From contig NZ_JAHOOZ010000001.1 of the NCBI RefSeq assembly GCF_019075875.1, positions 5,991,501 to 6,055,500 on the forward strand: a DNA stretch of 64,000 nt, in the 5' to 3' direction. The stretch comes from Novosphingobium sp. G106. Its GTDB lineage: Bacteria; Pseudomonadota; Alphaproteobacteria; Sphingomonadales; Sphingomonadaceae. Positions 15,717-20,599 of this stretch are shown here, piece after piece. The translations under genes and the position numbers were made by a program. Position 1 is the stretch's first letter; each line of letters starts with the position of its first letter. Below the pieces are notes generated by a model. That model saw only the letters and a program-made list of their open reading frames with translations. It was not told the DNA's origin and did no database searches.

Positions 15717-16193
15717 TCAGACCAAGCCGACCGCATGTTTGCCCATTTCACTAGAGCGGATAGCACTCCCGGTCAGCATTTTGAAAGTACCGAAAAGGCC
15801 CGGTTCTACGGTCCATACTTCGGCATCGTCGATTTCGAAGCGCAGCATCATGAGATCGGGATCGTTGCGACCGTTGGGAAACCACGCTTCGACTTCCTTC
15901 GACCAGTGCTTGTCGATGCGCGCGGGATCGGTTTCTTCGACCAGCGTGCCCGCGAGGCAGGCAAAGACGTCATGCCCCTTGCTGGCAAACTGGCCCATGG
16001 CCCGGCCGCCGGTGGCGATGCGGTTGCTGCGCGATGCGAAGAACCAGATCGTATGCAAGGCTTCCTTGTCGAGCTGAGCGGTCATCGGCTCGGCGTGACC
16101 GGCACCGGAAGCGGATGCGTCGTCGAGCCGGATCATGATGAACGGGCTCTTTTCGAAAGCGTGCCAGAATTCCTCGCGAATTTCCTTCTTCAT
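15717..16193 (-). CDS. Pyridoxamine 5'-phosphate oxidase-like general stress protein
   Basis: A 158-residue flavin-binding split-barrel protein of the general stress protein 26 type. The segments HTIWFFASRSNRIA, DPARIDKHWSKEVEAWFPNG and DLMMLRFEIDDAEVW are typical of this family, whose members bind FMN or related cofactors and whose true substrate is mostly unknown. Length is normal. The start at 16193 has AGGAGC upstream. An exact EcfG promoter lies 45 to 70 bases upstream, matching its stress role, and a sensor kinase follows in the same direction. Confidence 0.88.
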   Translation of the reverse strand: MKKEIREEFWHAFEKSPFIMIRLDDASASGAGHAEPMTAQLDKEALHTIWFFASRSNRIATGGRAMGQFASKGHDVFACLAGTLVEETDPARIDKHWSKEVEAWFPNGRNDPDLMMLRFEIDDAEVWTVEPGLFGTFKMLTGSAIRSSEMGKHAVGLV

Positions 16194-16288: not shown

Positions 16289-17692
16289 TTATTTCGCTTC
16301 GTCGGCGGCGCGTTTCAGGTCGGCGACGAGCGCCGCCTCGGCCTCTCGCGCGGCTTCGCGATCGGGCTGGCGCAGGATGTAGGACGGGTGGTAGCTGACC
16401 ACGCCGATCCCGTGCGCCAGGGTCACGCCCTTGCCGCGCAGCGCGCCGACCGCGCCGGTGCGCCCGGTTACGCTGCGGACCGCGCTGGCGCCGAGCATCA
16501 CCGTGGCGGCCGGTCGGAGCAGCCCGATCTCCTGGTCGAGCCACCAGCGGCAGGCGTCGATCTCGCCCGCATTGGGCGTCTGGTGGATACGCCGCTTGCC
16601 GCGCAGGACGAACTTGAAGTGCTTGACCGCATTGGTCAGGTAGATGCGGCCGCGGTCGAGGCCAGCCTCTTCCATAGCGCGAGCCAGCACCTGGCCGGCG
16701 GGGCCGACGAAGGGATGACCGGCGCGGTCCTCCTCGTCGCCGGGCTGCTCGCCGACCACCACTATGCGGGCATCGGGCGGACCTTCGCCGAAGACGCACT
16801 GCGTCGCGTCTTTCCACAGCGGGCAGCGGCGGCAGGCGTCGGCTTCCTTGCGAAGGCCGTCGAGTGTGATCCCCCGCTCGGTTGGCGCGACGACCTGCGC
16901 GGTCATGGTCGCCTCGCGAGCCTGCGCGCCGGCGATGAGCGGGGCAATGAGCTGGGCCTCCGGCATGTTCTTCCAGTAACGGCGCGGCATCTCCTTGAGC
17001 ATCGCCGATACCTTGAGACGGGCGGGGTTGAAGATCGACGCATAGTAGGCCTTCCAAACTTCTTCGAGCACGTCGCCGTCAGGTGCCTGGCTGCGATCGG
17101 CCCCAGGGCCTTCGCGCAACGCCGCGCCGTCCCAGTGGAGTGAAATCTCCGGAGTCAGGATCGACCAGCGCATCGTGGAGAAACGGCGGACGAAGAAGCC
17201 GGCATTGGCGCGGACCACGTGATGCTCCGGCTCGAACCAGGCCACAAAGGTGCCGTCGAGTTCGCGGAACCGGACGAAAGCGCGCATCTTGTGCATGTCG
17301 CGCCGTACCGCCTTGGCCAGGCCTTCGATGCGGCGGACGAGCGGATCGGCGTGGTCTTCGATCAGCCCGGAATTCTCGCCGAGATGGACCAGCAGCCGGT
17401 AGAGCAGTGAGAAGCGACCGGGATCGCGGTGAAGGACCGCTGCCTGCGCCAGTTCGATGAAAGCGCGCGGCACACGCAGTTCGCCGCTCGGGGCAGAGGG
17501 CAGTTCCTGCTCCGTGCCGAACAGGTCGGCGCTATCTTCGCCGACCTGCCAGACCACCGCATCGGGTGATATTTTCGCACTGGCCAGGCGCCGTGCGGCA
17601 TCGCGCCAGCCGTCGAAGTCGTCCTCCGCGGCAAGCCGGACCACGCGCGGCTGTTCGCGCGTGGTCGCCTGACTATTACTCGCGCGCGTCAC
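16289..17692 (-). CDS. DUF4130-UdgX fusion, uracil-DNA glycosylase superfamily repair protein
   Basis: A fusion of about 467 residues. The N-terminal half is the DUF4130 domain found beside repair-type radical SAM proteins. The C-terminal half is a family-4-like uracil-DNA glycosylase with ACRRCPLW (iron-sulfur cysteines), GEQPGDEED (motif 1) and VVSYHPSYILRQ (motif 3). Before motif 3 is GKRRIHQTP, the UdgX signature whose histidine in studied UdgX proteins bonds covalently to uracil sites in DNA. The start is uncertain: the GTG at 17692 overlaps the hemerythrin end. It lies in an operon with a hemerythrin and the radical SAM partner under a LexA-type box, so a damage-induced repair role is likely. 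Confidence 0.88.
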   Translation of the reverse strand: MTRASNSQATTREQPRVVRLAAEDDFDGWRDAARRLASAKISPDAVVWQVGEDSADLFGTEQELPSAPSGELRVPRAFIELAQAAVLHRDPGRFSLLYRLLVHLGENSGLIEDHADPLVRRIEGLAKAVRRDMHKMRAFVRFRELDGTFVAWFEPEHHVVRANAGFFVRRFSTMRWSILTPEISLHWDGAALREGPGADRSQAPDGDVLEEVWKAYYASIFNPARLKVSAMLKEMPRRYWKNMPEAQLIAPLIAGAQAREATMTAQVVAPTERGITLDGLRKEADACRRCPLWKDATQCVFGEGPPDARIVVVGEQPGDEEDRAGHPFVGPAGQVLARAMEEAGLDRGRIYLTNAVKHFKFVLRGKRRIHQTPNAGEIDACRWWLDQEIGLLRPAATVMLGASAVRSVTGRTGAVGALRGKGVTLAHGIGVVSYHPSYILRQPDREAAREAEAALVADLKRAADEAK

Positions 17693-18158
17693 CGGGCTGT
17701 TCGTGTGCAGCGCGTTCGAGTTCGCGCGGTTTGCGCTTTTCGAACACTGCGGCAAGCCGCTTCTCTGCCTCCTTCGACAGCCCCTTGGCGGCGGTGGGGA
17801 ACATCTCTTCCTCCTCTTCGCCGATATGATGGAGGTAGCGGTGGCGCATTTCCTTGAATTTCACCAGCCAGCCGCTCGAGCTCATGTCCATCTCGACCAG
17901 TTTGCCGAGCATGTCGTCGACTTCCTTGTGCTCGCTGACCGAATGGCGCGCGTCCTCGCGCAGGTCGGGCATGCCGAGCATCGTCGCGTAAAGCGATTCC
18001 TCCTCGGCAGCGGCGTGCGCCTGCAATTCCTTGCGGAGGGTTTCGAACAGGGACTTGCGCTCATCGCTGGCCCCCTGCGTCTCGCCGAGCTGTTCGAAAA
18101 GCTTGCGCTGGCGATCGTGGTCCTGCTTAAGATCTGCGAAGATACGGGCTTCGGCCAT
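17676..18158 (-). CDS. Hemerythrin HHE-domain protein
   Basis: A four-helix protein of 160 residues with the iron-binding His/Glu pattern of hemerythrin: QDHDRQRKLFEQL, HAAAEEESLY, HKEVDDML and HRYLHHIGEEEEEMFP. Such proteins bind a di-iron centre and handle oxygen, nitric oxide or iron. The ATG at 18158 has CAGGAGAA upstream. It sits between the radical SAM and UdgX genes, 33 bases after the first and overlapping the second. That place could mean it supplies iron or protects iron-sulfur clusters in these two repair proteins; this is inference. Confidence 0.88.
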   Translation of the reverse strand: MAEARIFADLKQDHDRQRKLFEQLGETQGASDERKSLFETLRKELQAHAAAEEESLYATMLGMPDLREDARHSVSEHKEVDDMLGKLVEMDMSSSGWLVKFKEMRHRYLHHIGEEEEEMFPTAAKGLSKEAEKRLAAVFEKRKPRELERAAHEQPGDARE

Positions 18159-18191
18159 GCGAATTCTCCTGAGCTTTGCCGAGTGAACGGC

Positions 18192-19430
18192 TCAGGCAGC
18201 GAAAAGTTCGAGCTGCTCGGCTGGCGGTGCGACGAGCGCGCGCAAGTCGTCGCGATCGACCAGCCGCGCGGGGCGCCAGTCGGCGGCGGAGATGAAGGGT
18301 CGAACCTTGGCGATCGACTGGGTCAGCCGGCCAACATCGTCGAGGCGAAGGCGCCGATGCCGGCGCGCCGAGAGGATCGCCGAGACGGCCTTGGTGCCGA
18401 GCCCGGGCACGCGCAGCAGGTGCTCCTTGTCGGCGCGGTTGACGTCGACCGGGAACGAACCGCGGAACTTGAGCGCCCAGGCGAGCTTGGGATCGATGTC
18501 GAGCGGCAGCATGCCTCCCTCCGTCGCCGCACCGACTTCGTCGGCCCGGAAGCCGTAGAACCGCATCAGCCAGTCGGACTGGTAGAGCCGATGCTCGCGC
18601 AGCAGCGGCGGTCGTTTCAGGGGGAGCACGGCGCTGGCGTCGGGGATAGGCGAGAAGGCCGAATAATAGACCCGCCGCATGGCATAGTCGCGGTAGAGTC
18701 CGGCGGCGCTGGCGATGATGTCGCTGTCGGTCGCGGCATCCGCGCCGACGATCATCTGGGTCGATTGCCCGGCCGGGGCATAACGCGGCGCCGACTTGAA
18801 TCGCGTGCTCGCATCGTGCGCCTCGACGATCGACGACTGCATGCCCGCCATGGCCCTGGCGATACGCGTGGCCGACTTTTCGGGCGCCAGCCGCTCGAGC
18901 CCCGCGACGGTCGGCAATTCGATGTTGATCGAGACCCGGTCGGCATAGAGCCCCGCCGCCTCGACCAGTGTCGGATCGGCATCGGGGATCGTCTTGAGAT
19001 GGATGTAGCCGAGAAACTTGTGCTCCTCGCGCAGCTTGCGCGCGACCTCGACCAACTGCTCCATCGTGTAGTCTGACGAGCGGATGATGCCCGACGAGAG
19101 GAACAGCCCCTCGATGTAATTGCGGCGGTAGAAGCCGAGCGTCAGCTCGACCACTTCGTCGACCGTGAACCGGGCGCGGCGCACGTTCGAGCTCTTGCGA
19201 TTGATGCAGTAGTGGCAGTCGAACTGACAGACGTTGGTCAGCAGGATCTTGAGCAGCGAGATGCAGCGGCCGTCGGGCGCATAGGCGTGGCAGATGCCCA
19301 TGCCCTCGGTCGAGCCGATCCCGCCGCCGCGCGAGTCGCGCTTGGCCGTGCCGGAGGAGGCGCAGGAGGCGTCGTACTTGGCCGCGTCGGCCAGGACTTC
19401 GAGCTTTTGTTTCAAAGACATCAGTGGCAT
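18192..19430 (-). CDS. Putative DNA modification/repair radical SAM protein
   Basis: A radical SAM enzyme of about 412 residues. The cluster motif CX3CX2C is seen as CQFDCHYC, and LLRVPGLGTKAVSAIL near the C-terminus is a helix-hairpin-helix DNA-binding element. This combination defines the family annotated as putative DNA modification/repair radical SAM protein, regularly linked with a DUF4130/uracil-glycosylase partner, which is found here two genes downstream. The reaction is unknown. The start may be 19430 or 19421 (MSLKQKL); neither has a strong ribosome site. A LexA-type box (19433-19447) abuts the start, so transcription should be SOS-controlled. Confidence 0.85.
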   Translation of the reverse strand: MPLMSLKQKLEVLADAAKYDASCASSGTAKRDSRGGGIGSTEGMGICHAYAPDGRCISLLKILLTNVCQFDCHYCINRKSSNVRRARFTVDEVVELTLGFYRRNYIEGLFLSSGIIRSSDYTMEQLVEVARKLREEHKFLGYIHLKTIPDADPTLVEAAGLYADRVSINIELPTVAGLERLAPEKSATRIARAMAGMQSSIVEAHDASTRFKSAPRYAPAGQSTQMIVGADAATDSDIIASAAGLYRDYAMRRVYYSAFSPIPDASAVLPLKRPPLLREHRLYQSDWLMRFYGFRADEVGAATEGGMLPLDIDPKLAWALKFRGSFPVDVNRADKEHLLRVPGLGTKAVSAILSARRHRRLRLDDVGRLTQSIAKVRPFISAADWRPARLVDRDDLRALVAPPAEQLELFAA

Positions 19431-19432
19431 TA

Positions 19433-19447
19433 GTTCTTGATATGTTC
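19433..19447 (-). promoter_or_regulatory. LexA-type SOS box
   Basis: GTTC-N7-GTTC on the plus strand (19433-19436 and 19444-19447), that is GAAC-N7-GAAC toward the repair gene. This is the known alphaproteobacterial LexA operator. It lies directly before the radical SAM start. Confidence 0.75.
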
Positions 19448-19473: not shown

Positions 19474-19563
19474 CGTCATCCCCGCGAAGGCGGGGACCTC
19501 AGGCGGTATGCGCGCAGCCTAGGGCTTTACCTGCTCCAGATCCCCGCCTTCGCGGGGACGACG
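19474..19563. repeat. REP-like inverted repeat pair
   Basis: Two 23-base arms (19474-19496 and 19541-19563) are inverted copies with one mismatch. Each arm contains its own near-palindrome CCCCGCGAAGGCGGGG. This is the look of a REP/REPIN element, a type common between genes in sphingomonads. It separates the divergent radical SAM and topoisomerase genes. Confidence 0.75.
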
Positions 19564-19606: not shown

Positions 19607-20599
19607 ATGCGGCTCCATTTTCTCGACGACGGCATGCCAGGGATCACACGCAGATTGCTGCGTGGGAAATGGGCCTATTTCTTGCCGGACGGCAGCCGTA
19701 TTACCGACGCGGAGGAAGTGACGCGCCTCAACCGGATCGCGCTGCCGCCGGCCTACCGCGATGCCTGGTATGCGCCGCGCCCCGACGCCCATCTGCTGGC
19801 GATCGGCTACGATGCGCGGGGGCGCAAGCAATACCGCTATCACCCCGACTACCGGCAGGAGCGCGAGACCCGCAAGTTCGAGCTCTGCGCGCCGTTTGGC
19901 CGCGCTTTGCCCAGGCTGCGCGCGCGGGTGGCCGATGACCTCGCTTTGCGCAGCCTGACGCGCGAGCGGGCCATCGCTTCGGTCATCGCGCTGCTCGATA
20001 CCGGCGCGATCCGCATCGGTAACGAGTTCTACGCGCGCGAGAACAAGAGCTTCGGGGCGACGACGCTGCGCAATCGCCATGCCAAGATCGAGGGCCGGCG
20101 GCTGCGGCTGCGCTTCCGCGGCAAGTCGGGCAAGCAGCAGGAAATCGACTGCAGCGATGCCGCGCTGGTCCGCTGCGTGCGGAAGATGCAGGACCTGCCC
20201 GGCCAGCGCCTGTTCCAGTATGTGGACCCTGACGGCGACGTGGTGCCGGTCGATTCGGCCGACGTGAACCTCTACCTGCGCGAGACGATGGGCGAGGAGT
20301 TCACCGCCCGCAATTTCCGCACTTGGGCCGCCTCGGCGCTGGCTTTCGGCCTGCTGGTGGAGAACCCGAACATTCCGCTCAAGACGATGCTCGAGGCGGT
20401 GTCCGAACGGCTCGGCAATACGCCGGCTATCGTGCGCAAGTCCTACATCCATCCCGCGGTCACCGCCGCAGCGAAGGGCGAGGCGCCGATCGCCGAACTG
20501 CCCGAAAGATTGCCGCGCCAGACGCCGTGGTTGAGCCGGGTCGAGCGCGGCCTGATCGATTTTCTGGAAACGCCTCGCGCGGTTGCCGCGCTGGGCTAG
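19607..20599 (+). CDS. Type IB DNA topoisomerase
   Basis: A poxvirus-like (eukaryotic-type) topoisomerase IB of 330 residues that relaxes supercoils by nicking one strand through a 3'-phosphotyrosine. Conserved catalytic context includes KQYRYHPDY and the GAIRIGNEFYARENKSFGA region. Tyr280 in RKSYIHP is the expected nucleophile. Length fits bacterial members. It is divergent from the repair operon; its stop overlaps the end of the receiver gene at 20596. In bacteria it is often part of accessory stress or repair sets. Confidence 0.93.
   Translation: MRLHFLDDGMPGITRRLLRGKWAYFLPDGSRITDAEEVTRLNRIALPPAYRDAWYAPRPDAHLLAIGYDARGRKQYRYHPDYRQERETRKFELCAPFGRALPRLRARVADDLALRSLTRERAIASVIALLDTGAIRIGNEFYARENKSFGATTLRNRHAKIEGRRLRLRFRGKSGKQQEIDCSDAALVRCVRKMQDLPGQRLFQYVDPDGDVVPVDSADVNLYLRETMGEEFTARNFRTWAASALAFGLLVENPNIPLKTMLEAVSERLGNTPAIVRKSYIHPAVTAAAKGEAPIAELPERLPRQTPWLSRVERGLIDFLETPRAVAALG

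What the first reader, a model, noticed from the sequence alone, without database searches (positions are those of the whole stretch)
16289..19447. LexA-boxed repair operon: radical SAM/HhH, hemerythrin and DUF4130-UdgX
A GAAC-N7-GAAC box abuts the first gene. The radical SAM protein and the DUF4130-glycosylase fusion are known to co-occur but have no assigned reaction. Here the glycosylase carries the KRRIH signature of UdgX, which in studied cases captures uracil sites covalently. A hemerythrin is wedged between them with overlapping coupling to udgX. Two iron-sulfur repair enzymes plus a di-iron protein under apparent SOS control suggest a damage-induced nucleic-acid modification/repair system needing iron supply or protection from oxygen or nitric oxide. 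This is the strongest candidate for an undescribed system in the window.
Basis: partly seen in the sequence, partly recalled or inferred. Interest (0 to 1): 0.82.

Follow-up and report, generated by a model that had tools for sequence, protein, structure and literature searches.

The report
SOS-controlled radical repair operon with hemerythrin
A known but biochemically unsolved bacterial DNA-damage operon, which pairs a radical-generating enzyme with a uracil-trapping protein under the SOS repressor, has in some members of one bacterial family an added hemerythrin gene, which gives a new handle for finding out what the pair does.

Summary
Confirmed. On the minus strand lie a TIGR03916 radical SAM/HhH gene (18192-19430), a hemerythrin-like gene (17676-18158) and a DUF4130-UdgX fusion (16289-17644 or -17692); a GAAC-N7-GAAC box ends 2 nt before the first ATG. 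In one window such a box is chance-level, but it stands at the rSAM start in 149 of 158 distinct loci (control motifs 0-6) and before lexA, recA and uvrA of this genome. SOS control of an HhH-UDG pair is already in print. The hemerythrin is no one-strain accident: it sits in the operon in 12 of 131 rSAM-bearing genomes of the family and 5 of 21 same-genus loci, keeps its iron-ligand residues, and stays beside udgX in two species where rSAM is split off. It was found in none of 65 loci from other families. None of ten literature searches listed a paper joining it to the pair. rSAM plus DUF4130 is the near-constant core; UdgX is optional. All six rSAM cysteines are invariant in 58 of 58: the radical motif plus three N-terminal ones that may bind a second cluster. 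Reaction and hemerythrin role remain inferred. Verdict: new variant of a known kind.

The parts
19433..19447 (-). LexA box GAACATATCAAGAAC, 2 nt before the rSAM ATG
   Evidence: the same motif at the start of 149 of 158 distinct rSAM loci, 93 of the 147 measurable ones with exactly 2 nt to the next in-frame start codon; boxes before lexA, recA, uvrA
18192..19430 (-). radical SAM protein with HhH-like motif, TIGR03916 (412 aa from ATG 19430; the next ATG gives 409 aa)
   Evidence: 562.2 bits, cut-off 343.5; PF04055 30.9 bits, cut-off 29.5
19206..19229 (-). CX3CX2C radical SAM motif (C68, C72, C75)
   Evidence: invariant in 58 of 58
19263..19364 (-). stretch with three further invariant cysteines C23, C47, C56 (possible auxiliary Fe-S cluster; inferred)
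   Evidence: each invariant in 58 of 58; low model confidence at residues 21-30 and 41-54
18360..18449 (-). helix-hairpin-helix-like motif
   Evidence: PF12836, E 0.00016, 22.1 bits, below the curated cut-off of 27
17676..18158 (-). hemerythrin-like protein (160 aa), AGGAG sequence before its ATG, 33 nt after rSAM
   Evidence: PF01814 64.2 bits; ligand-type residues H14, H48, E52, H77, H111, E115 invariant in 39 of 39
16289..17644 (-). DUF4130-UdgX fusion (451 aa from GTG 17644; GTG 17692 also possible)
16925..17644 (-). DUF4130 / TIGR03915 domain (residues about 1-240)
   Evidence: invariant D100, H118, R125, R154, R209, E229 in 53 of 53
16292..16873 (-). UdgX domain (residues about 258-451): GEQPG, R-loop KRRIH with H354, HPSYILR, presumed Fe-S ligand set C271/C274/H342/C365

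Best explanation
This is a LexA-repressed lesion-handling operon. The LexA box lies directly against the start codon (shown), so LexA probably covers the -10 region and start point of a leaderless transcript (inferred), and SOS induction should release all genes together (inferred). The near-constant core is the radical SAM/HhH enzyme with DUF4130 (shown by gene order). The UdgX domain, where present, is inferred from its motifs to excise uracil and hold the abasic site through His354, as M. smegmatis UdgX does with His109. I propose that the fused DUF4130 presents the trapped or damaged site to the radical enzyme, which uses a 5'-deoxyadenosyl radical, perhaps with a second Fe-S cluster on three conserved N-terminal cysteines, to alter the sugar or base and so finish repair or release the adduct. 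The hemerythrin is a lineage-specific accessory that most likely guards or services iron in these oxygen-sensitive proteins during the damage response. The chemistry and the hemerythrin's role are inferred, not shown.
Against: No direct evidence for any reaction, for interaction between the proteins, or for iron in the hemerythrin. 119 of 131 rSAM-bearing family genomes do without the adjacent hemerythrin, so it is not required. The same hemerythrin family is common as a stand-alone gene in the family, without a nearby LexA box, so its basic job need not be tied to SOS. Other unrelated genes also lie between rSAM and udgX in some species, several on the same strand (L115, L124, L157, L158, L163, L171), so the junction tolerates insertions. 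UdgX being optional argues that release of the UdgX adduct cannot be the general reaction of the core. The cysteine-rich N-terminus is modelled with low confidence, so a second cluster is not shown. Nine of 158 loci have no box.
Confidence: 0.4

Rival explanations
1. The hemerythrin is a passenger: a common family gene that landed in a permissive spot of a strongly regulated operon and has no functional link with repair.
For: Stand-alone homologues are common in the family; other unrelated genes, several on the same strand, also sit at this junction in some species; label changes on the trees are many (at least 5 on the hemerythrin tree; at least 10 on the rSAM tree).
Against: It is the only gene I saw at this junction in more than two of the loci whose junction I read, always in the order rSAM, hemerythrin, DUF4130, UDG (21 of 21 loci with it); its ligand residues are kept; it stays beside udgX when rSAM is separated (L115, L124); in L115 and L120 its stop overlaps the udgX start (GTGA).
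Confidence: 0.3
2. The hemerythrin is a damage-induced growth brake: like P. aeruginosa PA2171, reported to bind ribosomes and FtsZ, it slows translation and division while repair goes on.
For: The best NCBIfam match is the PA2171 family (59 bits, E 4.7e-16); PA2171 inhibits translation in vitro and interacts with FtsZ (PMC13041383, passages read); SOS regulons often contain division inhibitors (established knowledge, recalled).
Against: The match is far below the family cut-off of 190 bits, so it is not a member by that test; PA2171 lies in a different operon, PA2171-PA2173 (PMC13041383).
Confidence: 0.15
3. The radical SAM-DUF4130 core is a DNA-modifying or thiolating enzyme rather than a repair enzyme: three N-terminal cysteines hold a sacrificial or substrate-binding auxiliary cluster as in lipoyl synthase or MiaB (recalled), and UdgX was added to remove or trap by-products.
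Against: HydE ties at the same Z (17.1, rmsd 2.5 A, 213 residues); the cysteine region has pLDDT under 50 in part; a LexA box in 149 of 158 loci speaks for a damage response rather than housekeeping modification.
Confidence: 0.12

Closest known systems
SOS-regulated UDG-HhH two-gene operon, COG1573-COG4277 (PMC8565304; earlier reports cited there for Verrucomicrobia and Alphaproteobacteria)
   Same: LexA-controlled HhH gene with a UDG gene; I take COG4277 to be the TIGR03916 family (recalled, not from a call)
   Different: No hemerythrin in that paper's text (0 occurrences); other LexA motifs in Bacteroidetes
TIGR03916 rSAM_link_UDG with TIGR03915/TIGR03914 (NCBIfam)
   Same: All three models match above cut-off, in the expected pairing
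   Different: Hemerythrin gene between them; DUF4130-UdgX fused here but DUF4130-only in some other alphaproteobacteria
M. smegmatis UdgX (PDB 6AJO, 6AIL; PMC10359453)
   Same: 48-49% identity, GEQPG, KRRIH R-loop, same fold
   Different: Here fused behind DUF4130 and in an operon with rSAM; motif B reads HPSYILR instead of the published HPS(S/A)(L/V)(L/V)R
PA2171 hemerythrin-domain protein of P. aeruginosa (PMC13041383)
   Same: Hemerythrin-domain protein; best-matching NCBIfam equivalog
   Different: 59 bits against a cut-off of 190; different operon

Membership tests
TIGR03916 radical SAM (rSAM_link_UDG) | curated HMM cut-off | tested here: met
   562.2 bits against 343.5
TIGR03916 radical SAM (rSAM_link_UDG) | CX3CX2C radical SAM motif | tested here: met
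   C68, C72, C75 invariant in 58 of 58
TIGR03916 radical SAM (rSAM_link_UDG) | pairing with DUF4130/TIGR03915 | tested here: met
   TIGR03915 222 bits in the third gene, cut-off 112.25; DUF4130 downstream in 22 of 22 and 77 of 80 homologous loci
TIGR03916 radical SAM (rSAM_link_UDG) | enzymatic activity on DNA | not testable with these tools
   no reaction is assigned to the family in anything read
UdgX | motif A GEQPG and R-loop K-R-R-I-H | tested here: met
   both present; H354 falls on the R-loop histidine of the M. smegmatis protein
UdgX | motif B HPS(S/A)(L/V)(L/V)R | tested here: inconclusive
   HPSYILR: H, P, S and R kept, but Y and I stand where S/A and L/V are published
UdgX | 4Fe-4S cluster ligands | tested here: inconclusive
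   C271/C274/H342/C365 present, the same set in 34 of 44 fused homologues; which residues bind the cluster is recalled, and no cluster was measured
UdgX | covalent capture of the abasic site | not testable with these tools
   -
LexA (SOS) regulon of Alphaproteobacteria | GAAC-N7-GAAC (= GTTC-N7-GTTC) box in the promoter, conserved | tested here: met
   motif as given in PMC8565304
LexA (SOS) regulon of Alphaproteobacteria | LexA binding and damage induction | not testable with these tools
   -
Hemerythrin HHE domain (PF01814) | HMM cut-off and His/Glu iron ligands | tested here: met
   64.2 bits against 25.3; ligand-type residues invariant in 39 of 39; assignment of ligands is by the known HHE pattern (recalled)
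PA2171 ribosome-binding persister protein | equivalog cut-off | tested here: not met
   59 bits against 190
FeS_repair_RIC (YtfE) | equivalog cut-off | tested here: not met
   20.8 bits against 204.7
Lipoyl synthase-like enzymes with auxiliary cluster | N-terminal three-cysteine auxiliary cluster before the radical SAM motif | tested here: inconclusive
   three invariant cysteines ahead of the motif; fold tie with HydE; low pLDDT there
Known anti-phage defence systems (PADLOC) | match to any model | tested here: not met
   0 families for all three proteins at E 0.001

The most novel reading that the evidence does not exclude
A damage-induced three-protein machine in which UdgX covalently captures a lesion site, DUF4130 hands it to a two-cluster radical SAM enzyme that resolves the protein-DNA bond or rebuilds the nucleotide by radical chemistry, and a di-iron hemerythrin keeps the clusters alive in air: a direct radical repair route that releases a suicide glycosylase.
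Probability: 0.1. Interest if true: 0.88.

Novelty: new variant of a known kind. Interest (0 to 1): 0.5.

Why it matters
The rSAM gene is present in 131 of 199 sampled genomes of the window's family, carries a LexA box in 149 of 158 distinct loci, and yet has no assigned reaction in anything read here. UdgX, used as a tool for mapping uracil, has a largely unknown physiological role by its discoverers' own words (PMC10359453, passage). A recurrent hemerythrin partner, six invariant cysteines and an optional UdgX domain turn a vague 'DNA repair' label into concrete tests: which part is the core, whether the enzyme has a second cluster, and whether oxygen or iron limits it.

Tried and rejected
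Considered and rejected: (a) box by chance: rejected by conservation. (b) hemerythrin by chance in one strain: rejected. (c) all operon hemerythrins as one clade apart from the stand-alone ones: rejected by an AU test (p 2.8e-5 for all 21 operon rows, 5.0e-6 without the two most divergent). The test presumes a group named beforehand; mine was named by gene context, but the second grouping was chosen after seeing the tree, the 18 stand-alone rows are only part of those that scored best against the window's protein, and the bootstrap of that tree had not settled. (d) phage origin: two viral contigs and ten 'phage' records match; the one I opened, 'Acinetobacter phage MD-2021a', carries glyS, glyQ and aidB and looks like bacterial chromosome; the others were not opened. 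(e) defence system: no PADLOC match.

Led nowhere: no solved structure is related to rSAM by sequence at E 0.01. Spore photoproduct lyase was not among the rows shown, which excludes nothing. Neighbours of six stand-alone hemerythrins gave no clue by eye. The simple scan found no sigma-70-like promoter, and its only terminator-like site is on the other strand inside udgX. Two earlier papers on Caulobacter and Verrucomicrobia are not held and are cited only through PMC8565304. The main text of a Caulobacter SOS paper (PMC12700426, passages read) has no occurrence of radical SAM, uracil, glycosylase or hemerythrin; its gene table is in a supplement I could not see. Three papers in which searches found hemerythrin together with SOS or repair words were checked by passage: one lists a hemerythrin-like gene changed in an Acinetobacter ddrR mutant (PMC7273328), one has the word only in a reference (PMC3936754), one only in an annotation table (PMC3877243). 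The R-loop residue before the histidine differs in frequency between operons with hemerythrin (16 I, 4 L, 1 V of 21) and without (18 I, 51 L, 6 unread of 75); I take this as possibly shared descent and build nothing on it.
Full report
WHAT IS THERE. The window lies in a 7.2-Mb genome whose named close protein relatives are mostly Novosphingobium. Three genes run on the minus strand. The first, 18192-19430, is a radical SAM protein of family TIGR03916 (562.2 bits, cut-off 343.5) with a weak helix-hairpin-helix match. The second, 17676-18158, is a 160-aa hemerythrin-domain protein (PF01814, 64.2 bits). The third, ending at 16289, fuses DUF4130/TIGR03915 to UdgX/TIGR03914. The genome shows one rSAM match. 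The gap between the first two genes is 33 nt, with an AGGAG sequence before the hemerythrin ATG. The third gene starts at GTG 17644 by comparison with related starts (31 nt after the hemerythrin stop), or at GTG 17692 if the 467-aa database version P0121 is right (17-nt overlap).

THE BOX. GAACATATCAAGAAC ends two bases before the first ATG. By count alone such a box is unremarkable in this window (3 matches, 1.72 expected) and not rare in the genome (173 matches against 132 of the reversed pattern). The comparison decides. I took the rSAM loci held at that point, left out 28 listed duplicates, fragments, sub-threshold matches and one stray locus (the fragments L023, L024 and L077 have the box too), those with under 300 bits or too little upstream DNA, and identical upstream stretches; 158 distinct ones remained. 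Of these, 149 carry GAAC-N7-GAAC between -120 and +15, against 0 for the reversed motif, 0 for GACA-N7-GACA, 0 and 1 for spacers of 6 and 8, and 6 for GTTC-N7-GTTC. In 93 of the 147 measurable loci exactly two bases separate the box from the next in-frame start codon. The spacer is AT-rich (commonest letters ATATAAT). The nine without a box are L059, L170, L176, L184, L188, L190, L198, L209 and L213, eight of them not sphingomonads by title or kinship. Boxes of this form also lie upstream of lexA (50 nt before the matched domain), recA (139 nt) and uvrA (41 nt) of the same genome. The box leaves no room for a ribosome-binding site, so I infer a leaderless transcript whose -10 region and start LexA would cover.

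PRIOR ART. SOS control of such a pair is in print. PMC8565304 (passages read) reports a two-gene operon COG1573-COG4277 with a uracil-DNA glycosylase in the SOS network of Bacteroidetes and cites earlier reports for Verrucomicrobia and Alphaproteobacteria; those two papers are not held and I read nothing of them. PMC3765255 (passages read) calls DUF4130 a predicted mutagenesis-related enzyme associated with SplB-like radical SAM proteins and UDGs. Ten searches of the library listed no paper that joins a hemerythrin to this pair: UdgX with radical SAM (0 papers), SOS regulon with LexA, UDG and radical SAM (1), COG4277 with SOS (1), three of hemerythrin, LexA, UDG and radical SAM (2), hemerythrin with SOS response and LexA (5), hemerythrin with uracil, DNA repair and operon (0). 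Of the papers I checked passages in PMC8565304, PMC13041383, PMC7273328, PMC3936754 and PMC3877243; the other two I saw only in the listing. The library holds open-licence papers only.

THE HEMERYTHRIN IS RECURRENT BUT RESTRICTED. Same genus: 22 of 59 genomes have rSAM over the cut-off; in 5 of 21 loci with a whole rSAM gene (own window included) the hemerythrin lies between rSAM and UdgX. Same family: rSAM over the cut-off in 131 of 199 genomes; comparing places, the hemerythrin lies beside it in 12 of these 131 (G000, G076, G098, G109, G131, G144, G176, G196, G200, G204, and G250 and G251, where 2.5 to 2.7 kb of other genes separate rSAM from hemerythrin-udgX), all confirmed on fetched DNA; the match list was cut off among weak matches, so a divergent hemerythrin could be missed. 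Class: rSAM over the cut-off in 22 of 289 genomes; hemerythrin in 2 of 22, both of this family, and in none of the 18 from other families. Named genomes: 5 of 80 loci, four titled Sphingomonas or Sphingobium and one a MAG titled Pseudomonadota whose rSAM groups with sphingomonads; none among the 47 loci L167-L214 other than the Sphingopyxis locus L198, which lacks it too. The 80 are the best of more than 593, so distant groups are hardly sampled. Related hemerythrins are common as stand-alone genes in the family; in 19 such loci the nearest GAAC-N7-GAAC box, on either strand, is 2.8 kb or more away or not in the stretch (1.5 to 5 kb held each side). On a tree of 21 operon and 18 stand-alone hemerythrins, operon position changes at least 5 times (2 forced by well-supported branches), and one clade of operon copies is rejected (p 2.8e-5). 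On a tree of 100 rSAM proteins the label changes at least 10 times (3 forced); all hemerythrin operons then in hand were put in but only part of the others, so the ratio there means nothing. Ligand-type residues H14, H48, E52, H77, H111 and E115 are invariant in 39 of 39. The order rSAM, hemerythrin, DUF4130, UDG holds in all 21 operons. Where rSAM is separated the hemerythrin stays with udgX (L115, L124), and in L115 and L120 its stop overlaps the udgX start. Against a functional link: other, unrelated genes, several on the same strand, also occupy this junction in some species.

THE CORE IS rSAM PLUS DUF4130. DUF4130 lies downstream of rSAM on the same strand in 22 of 22 class-level loci and in 77 of 80 named loci (66 of these 77 within 100 nt and without hemerythrin, 5 with hemerythrin between, 6 with another gap); of the three exceptions two are cut by contig ends and one (L165, S. 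koreensis S11.1Y) shows no DUF4130 within 5 kb. The UDG domain is absent in 7 of 22 (1 more cut) and in 5 of 77 (2 more cut). So the optional part is UdgX, and the shared chemistry should lie with rSAM and DUF4130. All 21 hemerythrin operons do have the UDG domain. DUF4130 has enzyme-like invariant residues (D100, H118, R125, R154, R209, E229 in 53 of 53).

HOW IT MOST LIKELY WORKS. Shown: the box, its conservation, gene order, domain content, conserved residues. Inferred: LexA represses a leaderless promoter; damage releases it; UdgX traps uracil-derived sites through His354; DUF4130, fused to UdgX or free, presents the site to rSAM; rSAM performs a radical reaction on the nucleotide or the adduct; the hemerythrin, found in part of one family, protects or supplies iron. 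The rival that the hemerythrin is a growth brake rests on its best NCBIfam match, PA2171 (59 bits, cut-off 190), reported to bind ribosomes and FtsZ and to inhibit translation (PMC13041383, passages read). The passenger rival remains open.

VERDICT. Observation confirmed; interpretation partly supported. A new variant of a known, biochemically unsolved SOS operon. Interest 0.5: the pair and its SOS control are known, but the hemerythrin partner and the conserved extra cysteines make a long-open question testable.

Noticed in passing
window 19480-19496 (-) and 19541-19557 (+): An inverted pair of the 17-mer TCCCCGCCTTCGCGGGG stands just upstream of the operon; the genome holds three exact copies in all. 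Looks like a REP-type element.
   Followed up: partly
window 19607-20599 (+): A DNA topoisomerase IB gene is divergent from the operon; it is also next to rSAM in same-genus loci L005, L006, L020 and L024, and the first three carry the hemerythrin.
   Followed up: partly
alignment A3, columns of C271/C274/H342/C365: In 10 of 44 fused UdgX homologues the three presumed cysteine ligands are lost together, 8 of them with tyrosine at the last position, suggesting cluster-free UdgX forms.
   Followed up: no
L116:4864-5268:- and L162:6260-6670:+: A small, apparently membrane-spanning protein (134 and 136 aa) lies between rSAM and the hemerythrin in two species.
   Followed up: no
L235 (CAKLQH020000003.1): The 'Acinetobacter phage MD-2021a' record carries glyS, glyQ and aidB around an rSAM gene followed by a 'probable DNA metabolism protein' and looks like bacterial chromosome filed as phage.
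   Followed up: partly
plasmid collection, e.g. L236 (NZ_CP081087.1): rSAM homologues occur on 158 plasmid records, among them Phaeobacter, Leisingera, Paracoccus and Azospirillum; the Leisingera copy opened is followed at once by a UdgX gene.
   Followed up: no
literature, PMC7273328: A hemerythrin-like gene (A1S_0891) is among genes changed in an Acinetobacter mutant of the DNA-damage corepressor ddrR; kinship with the window's hemerythrin not tested.
   Followed up: no
window 15717-16193 (-): A pyridoxamine-phosphate-oxidase-like protein (PF16242) follows the operon on the same strand; not tested as a member.
   Followed up: no
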